A stretch of DNA of 64,000 nucleotides from Flavobacterium sp. 102 (GTDB lineage Bacteria > Bacteroidota > Bacteroidia > Flavobacteriales > Flavobacteriaceae). Position numbers and translations under genes: made by a program. Below, one piece after another: positions 7,644 through 15,602 of this stretch; position 1 is the stretch's first letter; each line of letters starts with the position of its first letter. The DNA is taken from assembly GCF_003634615.1 (NCBI RefSeq), contig NZ_RBKX01000001.1:2914001-2978000 (forward strand), written 5' to 3'. Under the pieces are notes generated by a model. It saw nothing but the letters and a program-made list of their open reading frames with translations. It searched no databases and was not told the DNA's origin.

Positions 7644-8528
7644 ATGATCAAAAGAACTTTATTAGTAGAAAACAAGACAACCATTACAACAAAAAATTTA
7701 CAACTTGTTTTAAAATCAGAAATCAAAGAAAGCACAGTTCCTATTGAAGACATCGGTTTTTTAGTAATAGACAATGCCGAAACCTACCTCAGTATTCCTG
7801 CAATGAACTTATTAATCCAAAACAATACCGCTGTCATCATTTGTAGCACCAATCATTTACCTAACGGTATGTTTCTAAACCTTAATAGTCATCACATCCA
7901 ACAAGAAATATTTAAAAATCAAATAAACGCAAGCACTCCATTAAAAAAGCAATTATGGCAACAAACCATTGTCGAAAAAATAACCAATCAAGGAATACTA
8001 TTAGAACAAATTACCGAAGCAAAAAACACTTTTCCTTTCCTAGCCTCAAAAGTGCTTAGCGGAGATAGCACTAATATGGAAGGAGTTGCCGCTAATCAAT
8101 ACTGGAAATCTTTCTTCGAAATAAAGTTTAAACGCGAACGTTTCGGCGACTATCCTAATAGTTTTCTAAACTACGGCTATGCCATTCTAAGAGCAGCAAC
8201 CGCCAGAGCATTATCCGGAAGCGGATTACTCAACACACTTGGCATCCATCACAAAAGCAAGTACAATGCCTTTGCCCTAGCAGACGACATCATGGAACCA
8301 TTCCGACCAATAGTCGATGAAAAGGTCTATGAAATAATGCAAAACTTCGAAGAACAAGAACTAAATACAGCCATCAAAGCCGAACTTTTACAAATACTAA
8401 CCCGAACAGTATACTTCAAAGAAGAAAAAAGCCCTTTAATGGTAGCACTTCAAAAAACCGCAAGCTCATTACAACAATGCTATACCGGTGACCGCAAGAA
8501 AATAAAATATCCAAAACTATGGAGCTAA
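7644..8528 (+). CDS. cas1: CRISPR integrase Cas1 (type II-C)
   Basis: A 294-residue Cas1, the metal-dependent integrase that with Cas2 inserts new spacers. The catalytic set is visible: Glu146 in STNMEGVAANQYWK, the His pair at 202-203 in LGIHHKSKYNAF, and Glu218 in DDIMEPFRPIVD. Length and motifs match type II Cas1. Its stop overlaps the cas2 start by 10 bases. No csn2 or cas4 is present, which defines subtype II-C. The CRISPR array begins about 230 bases past cas2, and cas9 is on the opposite strand beyond the array. Confidence 0.95.
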   Translation: MIKRTLLVENKTTITTKNLQLVLKSEIKESTVPIEDIGFLVIDNAETYLSIPAMNLLIQNNTAVIICSTNHLPNGMFLNLNSHHIQQEIFKNQINASTPLKKQLWQQTIVEKITNQGILLEQITEAKNTFPFLASKVLSGDSTNMEGVAANQYWKSFFEIKFKRERFGDYPNSFLNYGYAILRAATARALSGSGLLNTLGIHHKSKYNAFALADDIMEPFRPIVDEKVYEIMQNFEEQELNTAIKAELLQILTRTVYFKEEKSPLMVALQKTASSLQQCYTGDRKKIKYPKLWS

Positions 8529-8848
8529 ACGGATACAGAATTATGTGGCTATTTGTATTTTTTGATTTACCAACCGAGACCAAAAAAGATCGGAAATTCG
8601 CAAGTGGCTTTCGAAACAACCTCTTGAAAGATGGCTTTGCCATGATGCAATACTCCGTCTATGTCCGCCATTGCGCCAGTAGCGAAAGCGCCGATGTACA
8701 CGAAAAAAGAATTCACAAACTATTACCACCACTAGGCAAAGTAAGCGTCCTAAGAATAACCGACAAACAATTCGGCAACATCCTCAACTTCTGGGGCAAA
8801 GCAGAAATACCCAAAGAACCACAACCAACCCAATTAGAACTTTTCTAA
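8519..8848 (+). CDS. cas2: CRISPR Cas2
   Basis: A 109-residue Cas2, the dimeric bridge of the Cas1-Cas2 integration complex. The ferredoxin-fold start FVFFDLPTETKKDRK carries the conserved Asp16. ATG at 8519 overlaps cas1; an internal ATG (MWLFVFF) would shorten it by 8 residues. The C terminus ends in QPTQLELF, typical of type II-C Cas2 in this phylum. Confidence 0.93.
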   Translation: MELNGYRIMWLFVFFDLPTETKKDRKFASGFRNNLLKDGFAMMQYSVYVRHCASSESADVHEKRIHKLLPPLGKVSVLRITDKQFGNILNFWGKAEIPKEPQPTQLELF

Positions 8849-8960
8849 AACATATCAGTTATCTCTATCAACCGTTTTTTTGTCATCCCGAGCGCAGTCA
8901 GGGGAATACCCACAATTTTTCTCCCTCAAACTTGTCATGCTGACGAAGGAAACATCTCAT
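8849..8960. repeat. Decayed REP-like palindrome remnants
   Basis: Noncoding. It contains TTTTGTCATCCCGAGCGCAG and TTGTCATGCTGACGAAGGAA, degenerate arms of the TGTCATNNCGACGAAGGAG palindromic unit whose better copies flank the GIY-YIG gene at 10214 and 10679. It directly abuts the first CRISPR trailer copy at 8961. Confidence 0.5.
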
Positions 8961-9077
8961 CACAACCTCAGAAAACAAAAAATGCCTCAATCACAGCTTA
9001 TCATCCTGTAAAAGAAGCATTTTTTTATCACGATATACACCATATATCCTTGATTATTAGAAGGTAACAAGCCAACT
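8961..9077 (-). ncRNA. Trailer copy 1: tracrRNA-like element with terminator
   Basis: The third copy, closing mini-array C. Anti-repeat-like segment at 9048-9064, nexus-like segment at 9036-9051, and a CACGATAT segment at 9029-9036 complementary to the 3' part of the repeat. The terminator hairpin at 8977-9026 has A/T runs on both sides and could work in both directions, so it would also stop cas1-cas2 read-through. Confidence 0.5.
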
Positions 9078-9177
9078 AATATCGTGTTTTCTAATCTTAA
9101 TCAAATCTCCCTGATAATGAAACTTGATAAAATCATTCACCAAATATCGTGTTTTCTAATCTTAATCAAATCTCCCT
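9078..9177 (-). CRISPR. Mini-array C: variant repeats, one spacer
   Basis: Two variant repeats (9078-9112, 9143-9177) around one spacer (9113-9142). It has the same leader block and trailer as mini-array B, so it is a duplicate of that unit with a different spacer. Confidence 0.9.
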
Positions 9178-9189
9178 TTTCGGGAGATT
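9169..9189 (-). promoter_or_regulatory. Leader hairpin of mini-array C
   Basis: The same 8-bp AATCTCCC/GGGAGATT stem as in mini-array B. The 55-bp leader block 9178-9232 is identical to 9515-9569. Confidence 0.65.
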
Positions 9190-9232
9190 AACAAACACTC
9201 CGCTGAAAAATAAACACAAAGTGTTTGTAAAC

Positions 9233-9349
9233 CACAACCTCAGAAAACAAAAAATGCCTCAATCACAGCTTATCATCCTGTAAAAGAAGCATTTTTTTAT
9301 CACGATATACACCATATATCCTTGATTATCAGAAGGTAACAAGCCAACT
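9233..9349 (-). ncRNA. Trailer copy 2: tracrRNA-like element with terminator
   Basis: Identical to trailer copy 3 except one base at 9330. It closes mini-array B. Terminator hairpin at 9249-9298, nexus-like segment at 9308-9323. Confidence 0.5.
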
Positions 9350-9514
9350 AATATCGTGTTTTCTAATCTTAATCAAATCTCCCTTATCGAAGTTTACGAA
9401 CGTGAGGATGTTGGAATATCGTGTTTTCTAATCTTAATCAAATCTCCCTCGCAATACAGTAAATATCTTTTTGTGTGTAAATATCGTGTTTTCTAATCTT
9501 AATCAAATCTCCCT
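9350..9514 (-). CRISPR. Mini-array B: variant 35-nt repeats, two spacers
   Basis: Three identical variant repeats and spacers 9385-9414 and 9450-9479. The variant differs from the canonical repeat in its first seven bases on the transcribed strand (AGGGAGA for GTTGTGG) and lacks one A in the middle. The inner part still pairs with the tracrRNA, but the lower-stem bases GTTGTG that match CACAAT in the tracrRNA are lost. Confidence 0.9.
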
Positions 9515-9526
9515 TTTCGGGAGATT
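9506..9526 (-). promoter_or_regulatory. Leader hairpin of mini-array B
   Basis: AATCTCCC and GGGAGATT form a perfect 8-bp stem with a 5-nt loop (GAAAA on the minus strand). One arm is the 5' end of the first variant repeat. A second inverted repeat, ACAAACACT/AGTGTTTGT, lies further upstream on the minus strand at 9528-9565. The arm sequence differs from that of mini-array A exactly as the repeat differs. Confidence 0.65.
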
Positions 9527-9569
9527 AACAAACACTCCGCTGAAAAATAAACACAAAGTGTTTGTAAAC

Positions 9570-9686
9570 CACAACCTCAGAAAACAAAAAATGCCTCAAT
9601 CACAGCTTATCATCCTGTAAAAGAAGCATTTTTTTATCACGATATACACCATATATCCTTGATTATTAGAAGGTAACAAGCCAACT
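9570..9686 (-). ncRNA. Trailer copy 3: tracrRNA-like element with terminator
   Basis: 117 bp after the last canonical repeat on the transcribed strand. Read leftward it holds TTCTAATAATCAA, complementary to the repeat core (TTGATT and ATTAGAA). AAGGATATATGGTGTA follows, 13 of 16 bases like the nexus AAGGCTATATGCCGTA of the true tracrRNA. Then comes a long hairpin (ATGCTTC/GAGGCAT) and T6 at 9586-9635. The repeat plus this trailer could fold in cis. The lower stem of a standard duplex is missing, so it may be a decayed tracrRNA. Transcription is inferred. Confidence 0.5.
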
Positions 9687-10116
9687 AATATCGTGTTTTC
9701 TAATCTTTAATCAAACCACAACTACAGGTGTATTGGTTGCATCCGTAAACGGAATATCGTGTTTTCTAATCTTTAATCAAACCACAACCTTACCGTTTCG
9801 TATCGGGGCCTCGGTGTAAATATCGTGTTTTCTAATCTTTAATCAAACCACAACTTGTAAGCGTGTATCTGAAACTGATTTAGAATATCGTGTTTTCTAA
9901 TCTTTAATCAAACCACAACTGGCTTACTCCAACAGCATCAGATGGCAAAATATCGTGTTTTCTAATCTTTAATCAAACCACAACCCTTGGCCTAATACAT
10001 ACAACACATCCATAAATATCGTGTTTTCTAATCTTTAATCAAACCACAACCTACCGGCGTAGATGCGTTCAAGTCAAATCAATATCGTGTTTTCTAATCT
10101 TTAATCAAACCACAAC
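9687..10116 (-). CRISPR. Mini-array A: canonical 36-nt repeats, six spacers
   Basis: Seven perfect canonical repeats and six unique spacers (9723-9752, 9789-9818, 9855-9883, 9920-9948, 9985-10014, 10051-10080). The repeat's 5' half pairs with the tracrRNA at 15186-15210: 15 bp perfect, a 4-nt bulge, then 6 bp. This is therefore the array that the resident Cas9 can use directly. Its leader hairpin is at 10107-10148 and its trailer is the 117-bp copy at 9570-9686. Confidence 0.95.
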
Positions 10117-10148
10117 GGAGTGACTCCGTAGAAACTCCGTTGTGGTTT
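10107..10148 (-). promoter_or_regulatory. Leader hairpin pairing with first canonical repeat
   Basis: A perfect 15-bp inverted repeat (10107-10121 with 10134-10148, 12-nt loop). One arm is the start of the first canonical repeat plus GGAGT; the other is an upstream copy of the complement, AAACCACAAC as read on the minus strand. Further upstream sequence also resembles a decayed inverted repeat (AAGATTAAAAAG). In the leader RNA this would sequester the 5' end of the first repeat. Confidence 0.7.
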
Positions 10149-10213
10149 GGTTGCTTAAGATTAAAAAGTTTTATGTCAAAGAACTATTCTATTTTTGTCA
10201 AACCGACTTCTCT

Positions 10214-10289
10214 TTTGTCATTTCGACGAAGGAGAAATCTCATCATACCATTCAAGATTATGTGATTTCTCCTTCGTCGAAATGACAAA
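10214..10289. repeat. REP-like palindromic unit, right of array
   Basis: A perfect 26-bp inverted repeat (10214-10239 with 10264-10289) built on TTTGTCATTTCGACGAAGGA, around a 24-nt loop. It ends exactly at the stop codon of the GIY-YIG gene. A diverged copy with a related loop lies upstream of that gene at 10679-10754. Confidence 0.8.
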
Positions 10290-10628
10290 CTATTTATTAT
10301 TCACAAACCTATCATTCAAAAATTCAAATTCGGGATTAAAACTCCTAATTAAATCCAATTTCTTTTCCCTTCTCCAAGCCTTCAATTCCTTTTCTCTAGC
10401 AATAGCTTCTTGTACCCAAGTAAACTTTTCATAGTACACCAAAAACTCAATATTATATCTCGATGCAAAAGTTTTAATTCCTTTTTCAATATTCTCTTTA
10501 TGCTGCTTCAATCGTTCACCAAGATTATTTGTCATCCCAATATAATAAGTCGAACGGTATTTATTTGTAATGATATAAACATAAAAAGAATAGTGTCCTT
10601 CGTTATATTCAATCATGCTATTATTCAT
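10290..10628 (-). CDS. GIY-YIG nuclease family protein
   Basis: A 112-residue single-domain GIY-YIG protein of the small UPF0213/YhbQ-like class. The catalytic signature appears as YVYIITN followed by YYIGMTNNLGERLKQH, with Arg in GERL and a Glu near residue 79 (AREKELKAW) as the expected catalytic partners. Such proteins are often solitary in Bacteroidota and bracketed by palindromic repeats, as here. It is not a known CRISPR component; its position between the array leader and cas9 looks like an insertion. The start may be MNNSMIEY or the Met four residues later. Confidence 0.8.
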   Translation of the reverse strand: MNNSMIEYNEGHYSFYVYIITNKYRSTYYIGMTNNLGERLKQHKENIEKGIKTFASRYNIEFLVYYEKFTWVQEAIAREKELKAWRREKKLDLIRSFNPEFEFLNDRFVNNK

Positions 10629-10678: not shown

Positions 10679-10754
10679 TTTTGTCATTCAGACAAAGGAA
10701 GAATCAAATCACACCATTCAAAATTATGTGATTTCTCCTCCGTCGAAATGACAA
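10679..10754. repeat. REP-like palindromic unit, downstream of cas9
   Basis: Imperfect inverted repeat: TTTTGTCATTCAGACAAAGG on the left and GATTTCTCCTCCGTCGAAAT on the right. The loop contains CACCATTCAAAATTATGTG, close to the loop of the unit at 10214. It ends 2 bases before the cas9 stop codon. Confidence 0.7.
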
Positions 10755-10756
10755 CA

Positions 10757-13700
10757 CTACACTTTTTGAATTTTTCCAGAAACTGAAATTTTAAAATTAA
10801 ACCCTTCAACTAATATTTTCAATGCAGACTTTGACAATCTTAATTTTTCATTAGCAATATCAAAGTTAATTTCAGATGATTTTTCCAATAGCCCATCAGG
10901 TTTTGATGTAGAATGTAGTCTAAACTGTACTCTTCCATCAGATTCTATAGCAACTGTTTTATATAATCTTTTTACTAAATCAAAATTTTCTAGCTCCCAG
11001 ATTTCATCTTCAAAATCTTTATAAAACAATACTAAAGTTCCCGTTTTTAATAGAAATTTTAAATCTAAAATATTTTTATTTTTATCCTGCAAATTAAACT
11101 CTAAAGGATATTTATGAGTGTTTTCTTTTGAATTATAGTATTTGCCAGCTTCAAAATTATTAACAACTTTGTATTCTGATATAATCTTGCCTTTATCATC
11201 CTTTCCACTGTACAAAGCGAAACAATAATTCCCATCATTTTTAACATGATAAAATTGTTTATGTTCATGCCTTGAAACATCCCTATGTTTCTTGATAAAT
11301 AATGGATTCGTAACATCACTAGTATAATATCTTATCTTTTTTATTGGAACTGGAGCACCACTACCATTTGGCAAAACATACAATCCATTTTTTATTTTAT
11401 TCTCCAAAAGTTGAATAGAATCTCTAAGCGGTTGCTCATCCTCTTCTTTAAGGTCTCGCATTTGTTTTTTTAGGTCGTCAATTTCCTTTTTTAATTGCTT
11501 CTCTTGCTCTCTCCCATTTATAACAATTTCCTTGATTTTATCATCAACAATATTTTTTAAATCAGCGTCTTTAAATAATTCAATTGCTTGACGTTTCACA
11601 TATTTAACAACTTCCTCAGGTTTTCCGGTTTTTTTACTAATCTCCTCTCGTAAAATGGCTCCATAAAAACTCTCTTTGTGCAATGCACCACGAACAGTAT
11701 CTCCTTGCTTATATTTGATTTCTCCTTTTTCATTTCTTTGAATGATTCCTCTCTTTCTAATAGCTTTCTTACTTTGAATAGGTAAAACATCCGGTGTATG
11801 ATGACTTATCAATGTGTTTTTATCAAAGTCAGCAACATCTTTATGAAATCCATCCCATGGAATTCTGTGGGCAAAAGAAGGTTTTGGTTTTCCAAAAAAC
11901 TCAAATTGTTCTAAATCATGATAATAATTTGCCAACGCATCGTTTATATCTCTTGTACAACAAGCAACAACTACTGCATCTTTAGCATGATGCGCATGAT
12001 TATCTCTTGTCTTTTCTTCCAATCCCCACATTTGTCTCAAATTGGCTGTAGTCTTACCTTTTATTGGATATACTTTACTAAATACTGTTTTAAGAAATAA
12101 ATTTCCATATTTACTAATAATTCCTATGTCAACCGATTGACTATTTTTAAATCCTTCAGGAACTTCTTCCATTGTGAATGATTTATACTTTTTATAATAA
12201 TAAGTGTGCTCAAATCTTAATTTAGTTCTGTCGATAATATATTTATCTCTTTTCTCTTTGATTGAAGCTGCCTTAACTTTTTTAGACAATTCTTTAATTT
12301 GTTCTTCTAAAGTTTTATACCTAGCATACCAATGTTTAATTCTTGGTAAAATCTCATCATAGTTTTCGCATTCAAATGGAATTTTATCTTTCTTTATCTG
12401 TCTATTGTAAATAGCACAACATAAGGTTTTATTTACTTGTGAATTATCTAAACTCCTACTTCTAGGTATAGTATGCTCAATATCATACTTTGGATTATTA
12501 CCAATAAAATCAGATAAACAAATAGTTTTCCCTGTATAAAGACATACTTTGTTTTGCTCAATCCAAAGTTGGTATTTTAAAATATCTGTTTCAGTTGGTT
12601 CATAATCACTATAACCTGTATTTGAATCATTACAAGAATCATTTTTAATTTCTCCATTAAAAATAGACTTTATTTCTGCGCCATATTTACTACGTCTATT
12701 TTTCAAATCTTCTTGCCATTGCCTGATAGCAACTCTTTCGTTAGCAGAGTTTAATTCTCTTGGCATTTCAACATGTATAATCGTATCTTCATCTATTAAA
12801 TCATCTTTCATCAATTGATTAACTACTTTTTTCAATTGATGTAATGAACGCATTGCCATTGGATTTTTAATAGACGAAATTATAGGACTTCCCAAGTACA
12901 ACTTACCATCGTCTTCACCACGCTTAGCTTTTTTATATACTTCAATTGCTGAAGGGTGATATAAGCGTTTTAAATCATCATCATTAACATCAAAATTATC
13001 GCTTAAAAAAACCTTCAAAATTTCATCAATTGTTTTCTTTTTAGCAAATTCTCCTCTTCCTGAATTGAGTTTCATTTGATTTACAAATAATTCAAAACAT
13101 TCAGATAAAATCTCATTTTGATAAGTCTCAGAGGTTTCATTCCATTTTTTTGCACCAAAAAAATCTTTAATCTGTTTGTTTAAGCTATTCCTATAGGCTT
13201 CTGCTACAAATTGGTTATCTGAACTCCATGTACCATTGTCTTTTTTAACGTTCTTAATTAATCCATTTACAACATCAATTCTATTACTATAAGCTTTATA
13301 ATTTTCAATGATTGAATTTATTTCATTATTTATTATGGCTTTGTTTTCCTCATTATCCCAAATTTCTTTTGGCAAAACATTCTTCATGTTAGCCAAGAAA
13401 ACAGCATGCGAATAAATAAGATTCATTCTTAAATAAGGAAGTATATTTCGAATAGCCTTTAAACTTAAAGAACCATAGTCTAGCTTGAGTTTTATCTTTG
13501 AAAATTTTGTGGCGATTTTATCGTCACAATTAAAATTATCAATAGCAAATTGCTTTAAACGTTCTTCTTTATCAAAGCGAAATAATACATGCCAAACATC
13601 ATCAACAATATCCTCAACCGTCTTTTTAACCCTTACATTATTTTCTATTTTAGTATTTTTTACAAAATTTGAGTATAAATAGGTTTTCCAATCTAAACCA

Positions 13701-15073
13701 AAAACTTCGATTAAATTTGCTATGGTAGGACAACCAGCTACATTACTGCCAAAATTATAATTGAATAAAACATCATATTCTGTTACATTTTTATCTCTAT
13801 AGTAACCTGATTTTAGATTTTTTGGAGTGAGTTTTTTTGCAATATCAACAAAATCAAAATTTGCTTTTGACTTTCTAAAAAATAAAGATTGAATTTGCTG
13901 CCTCTCATCATCGTTTAACAGCCTTAATTTTTCATCAATAGGCAATTTAATTTTTACATTATTCAAGTAGCTTAACATTCTGAATTCTTCAAAATCAGGA
14001 TGAGATATTGGCACACATGCTTTTCTGTTTTCTAATGGACACTTAGCAACTAAACCCTTCTGAGATTTTAAAGGCCTCTGAAAAAAGATAGCTTCCTTAA
14101 TTTTTTCTCTTAATTCAGTATCTAAGCTTTGCTTATCAGATATAAAATTAAACTCTGCTAAATAATGATCTTCTCGATGAGTATATTCTCCTCTAATTTT
14201 TTGGCCAGTTTGATGTAATGTATAAAAATATTGACCTAATGTGGAACAATTCGATTTTACAATTTTTTCAGACAAGTCACTTATAGCTCTCTTTACCGGA
14301 CCAAGAAATTCTTTTCTGTTTAGACGCTCAATTAGCTTTTCCTTTAAATCATTATAGTTCAAAACTGCTTGTTCCTTTATTATAGTATTAAAGGCTCTTG
14401 AAAGTGCAAATAATGGTTTATCACTTGCTTCATCTTTATCAAAATTCAAAAGGAAATCAGAAAACATTTCTGAAAAATCAAATATAGTAACTGCATCATT
14501 GATTAAAGATGTTATTTCATCTTTTTTTTCTTCAATAATAGAATTGTCTGAACTATCCAATCTATTACTTAAAAAACCTCTTCTTTGCGCTATGTGGTAA
14601 AAAGCCCGACCTAAAACAAACCTATCTTTTTTATTGTTTAGATTTAATGACTCATTAGCTGACCTATATCGAAAAAAATATGGATTCTCATTTTGCTTTT
14701 TTCTTTCATTCTCATTTTCATGACTATCAGTACTTAACCAAACTCTAAATTCGTCATTTTGAGGATAAATCTTTTTATATCTCCATTTATTTAAGTCATC
14801 ATCTGATAATTTAGGACACAAATCATTATCCGACAATACTTTAAGTATATCTATCTTTCTTATTTTCCTTCTATACTTTAATTTTCTTGCACTTCTGTAC
14901 TCTGTTCTCTTAGCGGCTTTAGAACTTTCACTATTAGTTTTTGCTTCAATATTCACCCCCTCAGAAAATATCCTTACCCCTTTATCAACAAGGGCAAATT
15001 CACTTCCATCTTTATCTACAATCGCCCACCCAATACTATTAGTCCCCAAATCCAATCCTAAAATCTTTGCCAT
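10757..15073 (-). CDS. cas9: CRISPR endonuclease Cas9 (type II-C)
   Basis: A 1438-residue Cas9, the RNA-guided DNA nuclease. RuvC-I begins at residue 1 (ILGLDLGTNSIGWA, Asp8). The arginine-rich bridge helix lies near residues 53-78 (RTEYRSARKLKYRRKIRK). RuvC-II has Glu769 (IIHVEMPREL), HNH has His867 and Asn890 (YDIEHTIPRSRSLDN, CAIYNRQIKKD), and RuvC-III has Asp1032 (HAHHAKDAVVVA). All catalytic residues are present, so both nuclease sites should be active. The size is typical of Bacteroidota II-C proteins. It is encoded opposite to cas1-cas2, and its tracrRNA is divergent, starting about 105 bases upstream. Confidence 0.97.
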   Translation of the reverse strand: MAKILGLDLGTNSIGWAIVDKDGSEFALVDKGVRIFSEGVNIEAKTNSESSKAAKRTEYRSARKLKYRRKIRKIDILKVLSDNDLCPKLSDDDLNKWRYKKIYPQNDEFRVWLSTDSHENENERKKQNENPYFFRYRSANESLNLNNKKDRFVLGRAFYHIAQRRGFLSNRLDSSDNSIIEEKKDEITSLINDAVTIFDFSEMFSDFLLNFDKDEASDKPLFALSRAFNTIIKEQAVLNYNDLKEKLIERLNRKEFLGPVKRAISDLSEKIVKSNCSTLGQYFYTLHQTGQKIRGEYTHREDHYLAEFNFISDKQSLDTELREKIKEAIFFQRPLKSQKGLVAKCPLENRKACVPISHPDFEEFRMLSYLNNVKIKLPIDEKLRLLNDDERQQIQSLFFRKSKANFDFVDIAKKLTPKNLKSGYYRDKNVTEYDVLFNYNFGSNVAGCPTIANLIEVFGLDWKTYLYSNFVKNTKIENNVRVKKTVEDIVDDVWHVLFRFDKEERLKQFAIDNFNCDDKIATKFSKIKLKLDYGSLSLKAIRNILPYLRMNLIYSHAVFLANMKNVLPKEIWDNEENKAIINNEINSIIENYKAYSNRIDVVNGLIKNVKKDNGTWSSDNQFVAEAYRNSLNKQIKDFFGAKKWNETSETYQNEILSECFELFVNQMKLNSGRGEFAKKKTIDEILKVFLSDNFDVNDDDLKRLYHPSAIEVYKKAKRGEDDGKLYLGSPIISSIKNPMAMRSLHQLKKVVNQLMKDDLIDEDTIIHVEMPRELNSANERVAIRQWQEDLKNRRSKYGAEIKSIFNGEIKNDSCNDSNTGYSDYEPTETDILKYQLWIEQNKVCLYTGKTICLSDFIGNNPKYDIEHTIPRSRSLDNSQVNKTLCCAIYNRQIKKDKIPFECENYDEILPRIKHWYARYKTLEEQIKELSKKVKAASIKEKRDKYIIDRTKLRFEHTYYYKKYKSFTMEEVPEGFKNSQSVDIGIISKYGNLFLKTVFSKVYPIKGKTTANLRQMWGLEEKTRDNHAHHAKDAVVVACCTRDINDALANYYHDLEQFEFFGKPKPSFAHRIPWDGFHKDVADFDKNTLISHHTPDVLPIQSKKAIRKRGIIQRNEKGEIKYKQGDTVRGALHKESFYGAILREEISKKTGKPEEVVKYVKRQAIELFKDADLKNIVDDKIKEIVINGREQEKQLKKEIDDLKKQMRDLKEEDEQPLRDSIQLLENKIKNGLYVLPNGSGAPVPIKKIRYYTSDVTNPLFIKKHRDVSRHEHKQFYHVKNDGNYCFALYSGKDDKGKIISEYKVVNNFEAGKYYNSKENTHKYPLEFNLQDKNKNILDLKFLLKTGTLVLFYKDFEDEIWELENFDLVKRLYKTVAIESDGRVQFRLHSTSKPDGLLEKSSEINFDIANEKLRLSKSALKILVEGFNFKISVSGKIQKV

Positions 15074-15177: not shown

Positions 15178-15268
15178 GATTAAAATTCTAATCTTTAATC
15201 TTATCACAATAAGGCTATATGCCGTAGATGAAAATCTTAAGTCCTGCGTACTCCGTGGGACTTTTTTT
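15178..15268 (+). ncRNA. tracrRNA of the type II-C locus
   Basis: About 91 nt. The anti-repeat 15186-15210 (TTCTAATCTTTAATC, a TTAT bulge, CACAAT) complements the 5' half of the canonical repeat. The nexus AAGGCTATATGCCG follows at 15211-15224, with GGC/GCC pairing. After a linker GTAGATGAAAATCTTA comes an intrinsic terminator with stem AGTCC/GGACT and seven T (15240-15268). This order is typical of Bacteroidota II-C tracrRNAs. It also fixes the array's transcription direction as leftward. Confidence 0.88.
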
Positions 15269-15343
15269 ATGCTCAAATCATTTTCATCCAACCTCGCCAT
15301 TCTGCTAAAACAAGTTACTACCAATCTACTCTAAACATTGTCA

Positions 15344-15574
15344 ATTCCTCTATAAGTAAAAACGTTTCCTTTATAAGTAACACCGTTTCCTCCATAAGTA
15401 ACATCGTTTCCTCCATAAGTAACACCGTTTCCGCCTTAACTAAAGTCGTTTCCGCCATAAGTAACACCGTTTCCTCCATAAGTAACATCATTTCCGCCTT
15501 AACTAAAGTCGTTTCCTCCATAACTAAAGTCATTTCCAACCTAAGTGAAGTCATTTCTTTTATAACTGACATCA
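15344..15574. repeat. 21-bp tandem repeat (minisatellite)
   Basis: Eleven near-identical 21-bp units such as TTTCCTCCATAAGTAACACC plus one base, in perfect 21-bp phase. Because 21 is a multiple of three, all six frames stay in register. The minus strand encodes a heptad pattern (LLMEETV type, ORF 15318-15575) and the plus strand an equally regular one (VSSISNT type, no ATG). Neither looks like a known protein. It lies just downstream of the tracrRNA terminator. Confidence 0.8.
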
Positions 15575-15602
15575 TTTCTCTAAAATCACAACCACATAAA
15601 AA

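What the first reader, a model, noticed from the sequence alone, without database searches (positions are those of the whole stretch)
8961..10170. Segmented CRISPR array: three mini-arrays whose leader hairpins covary with two repeat types
Read leftward, the array splits into units with 6, 2 and 1 spacers. Unit A uses seven identical 36-nt repeats; units B and C use five identical 35-nt variants that differ in the first seven bases. Each unit starts with a hairpin whose 3' arm is the 5' end of its own first repeat. In A the pairing is AAACCACAAC with GTTGTGGTTT; in B and C it is AATCTCCC with GGGAGATT. The upstream arm changed together with the repeat, which is hard to explain by drift and suggests that the leader-repeat fold matters, for example in crRNA processing or spacer ranking. 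Leader-repeat folding has been described for some Cas9 systems; a concerted switch of repeat and leader within one array is unusual. Pairings are seen in the sequence; function is inference.
Basis: partly seen in the sequence, partly recalled or inferred. Interest (0 to 1): 0.88.

Follow-up and report, generated by a model that had tools for sequence, protein, structure and literature searches.

The report
Hairpin caps on CRISPR array starts
In many Flavobacterium relatives the first, spacer-less repeat of the Cas9 CRISPR array folds into a hairpin with the sequence just upstream, probably so that it cannot make a useless guide RNA; this array also carries two duplicated mini-arrays whose repeats were altered by a short palindromic insert so far seen only in CRISPR arrays.

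Summary
In detail: units with 6, 2 and 1 spacers, two repeat types, and a hairpin onto each unit's first repeat. Two readings change. (1) The hairpins are not at the acquisition leader. In this II-C locus the conserved leader follows the last repeat; the hairpin sits on the oldest, 'extra' repeat. (2) The B/C repeats are not drifted A repeats. A palindromic insert (E1) splits the repeat after GTTGTGGTTT, and its end became the first 7 nt of the B/C repeats; B and C are one duplication.

The general idea is strongly supported. A perfect helix of 10 bp or more caps 46 of 62 first repeats, against 2 of 1810 other repeats. The inner stem covaries. In two Flavobacterium loci with another repeat type, the same upstream box carries an arm changed to match.

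Best explanation: a cis anti-repeat that hides the extra repeat from the tracrRNA and blocks extraneous crRNA. This is known for II-A and type VI but was reported absent from II-C. B/C repeats pair poorly with the only tracrRNA found, and one B spacer matches the host's own rpsJ: probably silent spacers. All functional steps are inferred.

The parts
10107..10148 (-). Cap hairpin of unit A: arm AAACCACAAC (10148-10139), inner stem GGAGT/ACTCC within 10138-10117, and the 5' end of the extra repeat GTTGTGGTTT (10116-10107)
   Evidence: sequence; 46 of 62 related first repeats capped; covariation
9687..10116 (-). Unit A: seven identical 36-nt repeats and six spacers
9582..9686 (-). Leader copy 1 (true acquisition leader, with a terminator-like hairpin)
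   Evidence: 74 of 81 loci scanned hold it
9528..9575 (-). Repeat stub GTTGTGGTTT (9575-9566) followed by the first part of insert E1 (9565-9528), unit B
9506..9526 (-). Right-end hairpin of E1 in unit B: AATCTCCC (9526-9519) with GGGAGATT (9513-9506)
   Evidence: (arm-swap control)
9350..9514 (-). Unit B: three 35-nt altered repeats and two spacers (9479-9450 matches the host's own rpsJ; 9414-9385)
9245..9349 (-). Leader copy 2
9191..9238 (-). Repeat stub (9238-9229) and first part of insert E1 (9228-9191), unit C
9169..9189 (-). Right-end hairpin of E1 in unit C
9078..9177 (-). Unit C: two altered repeats and one spacer (9142-9113)
8973..9077 (-). Leader copy 3
15185..15268 (+). Candidate tracrRNA, divergent from cas9; its anti-repeat pairs with the A repeat over 8 + 15 bp; T-run at the end
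   Evidence: prediction, not validated
10757..15073 (-). cas9
   Evidence: TIGR01865, 397.6 bits, cut-off 100
7644..8528 (+). cas1, type II
   Evidence: TIGR03639, 294.5 bits, cut-off 120
8519..8848 (+). cas2
   Evidence: TIGR01573, 62.9 bits, cut-off 24.5

Best explanation
The unit A hairpin is a cis anti-repeat cap on the extra (oldest, spacer-less) repeat of a type II-C array. A transcript that enters the array from upstream (cas9 and a small ORF lie upstream on the same strand) folds AAACCACAAC onto GTTGTGGTTT and takes the would-be guide into the same stem, so the tracrRNA cannot pair there and no extraneous crRNA is made. Shown: the hairpin, its conservation and its covariation. Inferred: the fold in the cell and its effect. 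Units B and C are tandem copies of a minimal array (repeat stub, insert E1, repeat, leader). The copies kept leader and repeat 3' end, so Cas1-Cas2 could add spacers flanked by the altered repeat. Guides from B and C are probably weak or silent with the only tracrRNA found (inferred), which would explain why a perfect match to the host's own rpsJ is tolerated.
For: Cap at 46 of 62 first repeats, 2 of 1810 other repeats, 0 of 1240 shuffles. Loci without a perfect cap mostly have an altered repeat start: 11 of 16, against 0 of 46 capped loci. Covariation score 0.137 against 0.060 for shuffles (0 of 500) and at most 0.055 for slid partners. The arm switches with the repeat in L230 and L254. Predicted tracrRNA binding is weaker at the first repeat than at every internal repeat scored in 38 of 39 usable loci. 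E1 splits repeats at one place: 19 copies in 12 of 396 genomes, all in II-C loci. B repeat to tracrRNA -16.9 kcal/mol, A repeat -28.4. One cas9 in the genome. Spacer B1 is 30/30 in rpsJ.
Against: No RNA data. Published surveys found no leader-repeat hairpin in II-C (PMC12080349). Among the original sample the repeat-derived pairs hardly vary, so their covariation rests on two loci, one cut by a contig end. In one search two measures do not exceed the shuffles (pairs with a change on both sides 4 against 4.0; further pair types 11 against 13.2), and RNAalifold alone gives only one pair with changes on both sides. Five of 62 loci have an intact first repeat and no perfect cap; 39 of 40 loci with the other repeat type have none. 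In L040 the first repeat is not predicted to bind more weakly than every other. The PAM of this Cas9 is unknown, so B1 may be harmless for lack of a PAM, and one self spacer is weak evidence.
Confidence: 0.62

Rival explanations
1. [quoted passage not shown]
For: A DNA palindrome would covary in the same way; the repeat-derived part is nearly invariant.
Against: The arm pairs exactly with the part of the repeat that the tracrRNA binds, and loci without the cap have that part of the repeat altered instead, as expected if tracrRNA pairing is what matters.
Confidence: 0.15
2. The cap is a processing or transcription signal: an RNase III site or attenuator that trims or stops transcripts coming from cas9.
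For: It lies downstream of genes on the same strand, and II-C arrays can have upstream terminators (PMC12080349, results read).
Against: No T-run follows the hairpin; the repeat GATTAAAG does. Stopping read-through would not need the repeat as one arm.
Confidence: 0.12
3. One reading: a leader-repeat fold that switched together with the repeat within one array and serves crRNA processing or spacer ranking.
For: Each unit's hairpin does include the 5' end of its own first repeat.
Against: The leader is at the other end; the B/C difference is an insertion end; B and C are one duplication.
Confidence: 0.05
4. Units B and C are a second working array type with its own tracrRNA and a role for the E1 hairpins in expression.
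For: Five identical B/C repeats and three acquired spacers show use by the integrase; the right-end hairpin is kept with different letters in other species (7.5 of 8 pairs against 5.7, 165 of 10000 swaps as good).
Against: No second cas9 and no separate B-type anti-repeat by one exact pattern; among relatives the module repeats are mostly without spacers and several are split by further inserts.
Confidence: 0.12

Closest known systems
Type II-A leader-repeat hairpin that blocks extraneous crRNA (Liao et al. 2022; not read, as described in PMC12080349 and PMC13187072)
   Same: A hairpin between upstream sequence and the 5' end of the first transcribed repeat, placed to keep the tracrRNA off.
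   Different: Here the capped repeat is the oldest and lies away from the leader; in II-A it is at the acquisition leader and the hairpin also speeds maturation of the newest crRNA. Our function is inferred.
Type II-C strategies of PMC12080349: mutated extra repeat, upstream terminator, hairpin in the ecrRNA guide (introduction, results, discussion read)
   Same: The inner stem lies in the would-be ecrRNA guide; loci without a cap often have an altered extra repeat.
   Different: The stem runs on into the repeat itself, which that paper says was not found in II-C; no T-run follows, so it is not a terminator of that kind.
Type VI leader-repeat hairpins (PMC13187072; abstract and passages seen)
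   Same: A hairpin with the first repeat that prevents ecrRNA formation.
   Different: Cas13 without tracrRNA; the leader is at that end; shown by experiment there.
Palindromic MITE or REP-like elements (recalled)
   Same: E1 is short, palindromic, non-coding, follows a fixed TTT, and is sometimes doubled (L033, L154).
   Different: Seen only in II-C arrays, not dispersed; no mobilising gene was looked for.

Membership tests
Type II-C CRISPR-Cas | cas9, cas1 and cas2 at the locus | tested here: met
   all above curated cut-offs
Type II-C CRISPR-Cas | no csn2 or cas4 at the locus | tested here: inconclusive
   no further ORF of 80 aa or more lies between cas1 and cas9 except the GIY-YIG-like ORF and an ORF antisense to it; the other neighbours were not scanned for these families
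Type II-C CRISPR-Cas | acquisition leader downstream of the last repeat | tested here: inconclusive
   the conserved segment lies there; acquisition itself was not observed
ecrRNA-blocking leader-repeat hairpin (II-A kind) | hairpin between upstream sequence and the first transcribed repeat, beyond chance | tested here: met
ecrRNA-blocking leader-repeat hairpin (II-A kind) | hairpin adjoins the acquisition leader | tested here: not met
   it is at the other end; so it works like, but is not, the II-A feature
ecrRNA-blocking leader-repeat hairpin (II-A kind) | competes with tracrRNA and suppresses ecrRNA | not testable with these tools
   energies only
II-C upstream Rho-independent terminator | T-run after the hairpin | tested here: not met
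   sequence
Dispersed MITE or REP-like element (for E1) | copies scattered around the genome | tested here: not met
   own genome: 2 places, both in this array; genus: 19 copies in 12 of 396 genomes, all in II-C loci

The most novel reading that the evidence does not exclude
E1 is a CRISPR-specific selfish or co-opted palindromic element. It inserts in the II-C repeat and disconnects it from the tracrRNA while leaving the rest of the repeat and the leader in place, and so builds tandem mini-arrays that accept spacers but stay silent: tolerant sinks in which self spacers such as rpsJ can be stored without autoimmunity. The cap hairpin would be a second, more widespread way to silence a repeat.
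Probability: 0.25. Interest if true: 0.85.

Novelty: new variant of a known kind. Interest (0 to 1): 0.68.

Why it matters
It places an extra-repeat hairpin in type II-C, where the published survey reported none (PMC12080349), with covariation that includes a switch of repeat type. It offers loci on which one can test whether control of extraneous crRNA arose more than once, and a natural array that may separate spacer acquisition from guide function. It also suggests, from one locus, that the integrase finds the far end of the repeat without the repeat's own 5' sequence.

Tried and rejected
Rfam gave nothing relevant: 22 matches at E up to 5, all below gathering scores. E1 as a dispersed MITE: rejected. 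A second cas9: none in the own genome. A separate B-type tracrRNA: none by one exact pattern. The true leader as covarying partner of the repeat: rejected, because L039 and L068, whose repeat has ATTTGAA, keep TTCTAAT. A first control that allowed G-U pairs and one mismatch did not discriminate (9 bp or more at 55 of 62 first repeats and 1801 of 1810 others), because the repeat's 5' end pairs imperfectly with the preceding repeat; I replaced it by perfect Watson-Crick helices.

Spacer targets: near-full-length matches were found only for A3 (L164 29/29, L165 and L166 27/29) and B1 (own rpsJ). The A2 hit L163 matches 22 of 30. Seven of nine spacers (A1, A2, A3, A5, A6, B2, C1) were searched in viral contigs by their 19-20 nt 3' ends; A4 and B1 were not. 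Phage records gave no convincing match for the array or for B1. No other spacer than B1 matched the own genome at E 0.001. The 3' flanks of A3 and B1 share NNNTCC, too little to name a PAM.

Rows dropped: of 57 regex hits in 70 loci, six were dropped as matches inside the array (L046, L056, L076, L084, L088, L094), leaving 51 that were preselected by the arm pattern. These collapsed to 40 distinct cores; three with E1 (L040, L081, L097) were left out of alignment A1 (37 rows). The nine rows were chosen by me. One search left out loci with a doubled E1 or without a readable repeat. In the order sample, 80 of the listed Cas9 places were fetched: 13 gave no array, 10 could not be oriented, 5 were short or masked, 52 were scored. 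In one search, nine of 48 rows were dropped because the tracrRNA match (4-5 mismatches) was the array itself.

Full report
What is there. The window lies in a one-contig genome of 3.8 Mb. The locus has cas1 and cas2 (7644-8848, +), the array (minus strand), a GIY-YIG-like ORF (10290-10628, -), cas9 (10757-15073, -) and a divergent tracrRNA candidate at 15185-15268 (+). Its anti-repeat pairs with the A repeat over 8 + 15 bp, which sets the direction of the crRNA on the minus strand.

Which end is the leader. The B/C unit as bait matched in 73 of 398 genus genomes. In most of the places listed with strong scores the matching part is the stretch that begins in the last repeat and runs on past it (AGTTGGCTTGTTACC...GCATTTTTT); one search finds it in 74 of 81 loci scanned. 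In II-C, spacers enter at the last repeat (PMC12080349; for F. columnare PMC8092290, passages). The hairpins are therefore on the oldest repeat, the one without a spacer of its own, which would give an extraneous crRNA.

The cap in relatives. Of 70 loci (the window and 69 fetched through that bait, so not a random sample), 62 have a readable 5' end, 7 are cut short and 1 gave no repeat. A perfect Watson-Crick helix of 10 bp or more onto the first repeat is present in 46 of 62, in 2 of 1810 other repeats and in 0 of 1240 shuffles. All 46 have an intact repeat start; of the 16 without a perfect cap, 11 have an altered start and 5 do not (L046, L056, L076, L084, L087; Fisher P 9e-9). The altered starts include E1 in the first repeat (L040, L081, L091, L093, L097) and a tracrRNA-like anti-repeat overlapping it (L030, L061). 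In an order-wide sample, 8 of 12 loci with this repeat type have the cap (0 of 345 other repeats), in four cases outside the genus (L174, L199, L226, L241); with the GTTGTGAATTGCT type it is 1 of 40 (1 of 1123 other repeats).

Covariation. On 37 distinct hairpins 95.8% of cells pair, against 90.6% for shuffles, and the covariation score is 0.137 against 0.060 for shuffles and at most 0.055 for slid partners. Changes on both sides fall in the inner stem; repeat-derived pairs hardly vary. Two measures do not exceed the shuffles: pairs with a change on both sides (4 against 4.0) and further pair types (11 against 13.2). RNAalifold on the same alignment finds 12 pairs, one with changes on both sides. 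Swapping inner arms between loci lowers pairing from 4.05 to 3.02 of 5 (0 of 10000 swaps as good). The strongest cases are L230 and L254: the upstream box is the usual one (TCTTAAACATCC, TCTTAAACAGCC), the repeat starts GTTGTGAATTG, and the arm is AATTCACAAC. Two repeat-derived pairs changed on both sides, A-U to U-A and C-G to U-A. L230 has 34 repeats. L254 was the only hit in 396 genomes, in a genome 75% complete, and its contig ends 20 nt into the repeat, so the array is not seen there.

What the cap does. The arm covers the part of the repeat that the tracrRNA pairs with. Predicted net tracrRNA binding is weaker at the first repeat than at every internal repeat scored (up to 12) in 38 of 39 loci with a tracrRNA found at 2 mismatches or fewer (L040 is the exception). 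These are energies on loci chosen for having the hairpin. The step to absence of ecrRNA is inferred from II-A and type VI work as told in PMC12080349 and PMC13187072.

Units B and C. Each starts with a repeat stub GTTGTGGTTT, then ACAAACAC...GTGTTTGT, then AATCTCCC-loop-GGGAGATT running into TTTGATTAAG. Without the stretch from ACAAACAC to GGGAGATTT the sequence reads as an ordinary repeat, short of one A. Similar inserts, with other loops and right ends, split repeats at the same place in other species. A pattern for them gave 19 copies in 12 of 396 genus genomes, all in II-C loci; the window's own variant (GTGTTTGTTA) falls outside that pattern. In genome contigs, 24 of 38 stretches are II-C arrays or their leaders by my reading of the flanks, and 14 are lone matches; three viral contigs are lone matches too. 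The leader occurs more than once in 15 of 74 loci (14 genomes; some were fetched because they hold E1), with E1 between the leaders in 13 of the 14, L091 being the exception. Lutibacter sp. HS1-25 has at least 11 tandem copies on two contigs. On a quick Cas1 tree of 65 rows the module (14 rows) needs at least 9 changes, 3 of them forced by starred branches, so it is often gained or lost, or it moves. The right-end hairpin is kept with different letters (AATCTCCC/GGGAGATT, AATCGAAA/TTTCGATT, AATTGAAA/TTTCAATT; 6 distinct arm pairs, 165 of 10000 swaps as good).

Are B and C used? The B repeat pairs with the tracrRNA at -16.9 against -28.4 kcal/mol and loses most of the lower stem in the duplex; in context it is -13.2 to -14.6 against -20.3 to -22.1 for internal A repeats. 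Spacer B1 is a 30/30 match inside the host's own rpsJ (ribosomal protein S10), while no A spacer matches the own genome. A lethal self guide is easier to keep if silent, but one spacer and an unknown PAM do not prove it. Because all five B/C repeats are identical, the integrase seems to have copied a repeat with a foreign 5' end; and since the copies are 35 nt with the 1-nt deletion inside, the far cut may be set from an internal motif rather than by a fixed 36 nt (inference).

Literature. Six searches (leader RNA and first repeat, Flavobacterium II-C, inserts in CRISPR repeats, ecrRNA, II-C hairpins, duplicated leaders) listed no paper that, from listings and the passages read, describes a cap on the II-C extra repeat, E1 or tandem leaders. 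PMC12080349 says that no leader-repeat hairpins were identified in II-C. Only open-licence papers are held, and the listings were capped.

Noticed in passing
window 9450-9479; L028:3989-4018: Spacer B1 matches 30 of 30 bases of the host's own rpsJ (ribosomal protein S10), next to EF-G and L3 genes; the 3' flank is TTCTCCGCAC.
   Followed up: partly
window 9078-9514: B/C repeats are 35 nt, with a foreign 5' end and a 1-nt deletion, yet were duplicated with 30-nt spacers: a hint that the integrase sets the far cut from an internal motif.
   Followed up: no
leader copies, e.g. window 9582-9686: The leader holds TTCTAATAATCAA, complementary to the middle of the last repeat with a bulge, and ATATCGTG, complementary to its end; the first arm does not track repeat changes in L039 and L068.
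   Followed up: partly
L030 and L061, start of the array: The first 'repeat' is the complement of a tracrRNA-like anti-repeat, with a terminator-like stretch upstream on the other strand.
   Followed up: no
L033, L084, L128, L130, L142, L154: Repeats next to E1 are split again by other short inserts, such as CGAG..CGAGATTCGG..CAGCC and CCCGATAGCCATCGGG, suggesting that these repeats decay or attract palindromes.
   Followed up: no
L137 and L158 (Lutibacter sp. HS1-25): At least 11 near-identical tandem modules with a 239-nt period and no spacers seen between them.
   Followed up: no
window 10214-10289, 10679-10754, 8932-8960: Large palindromic repeat TTGTCATTTCGACGAAGGAGAAATC in several copies around the array.
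   Followed up: no
window 15318-15575: An 85-aa ORF made of a short tandem peptide repeat upstream of cas9.
   Followed up: no
window 10290-10628: A GIY-YIG-like ORF between cas9 and the array; only a weak family match below cut-off.
   Followed up: no
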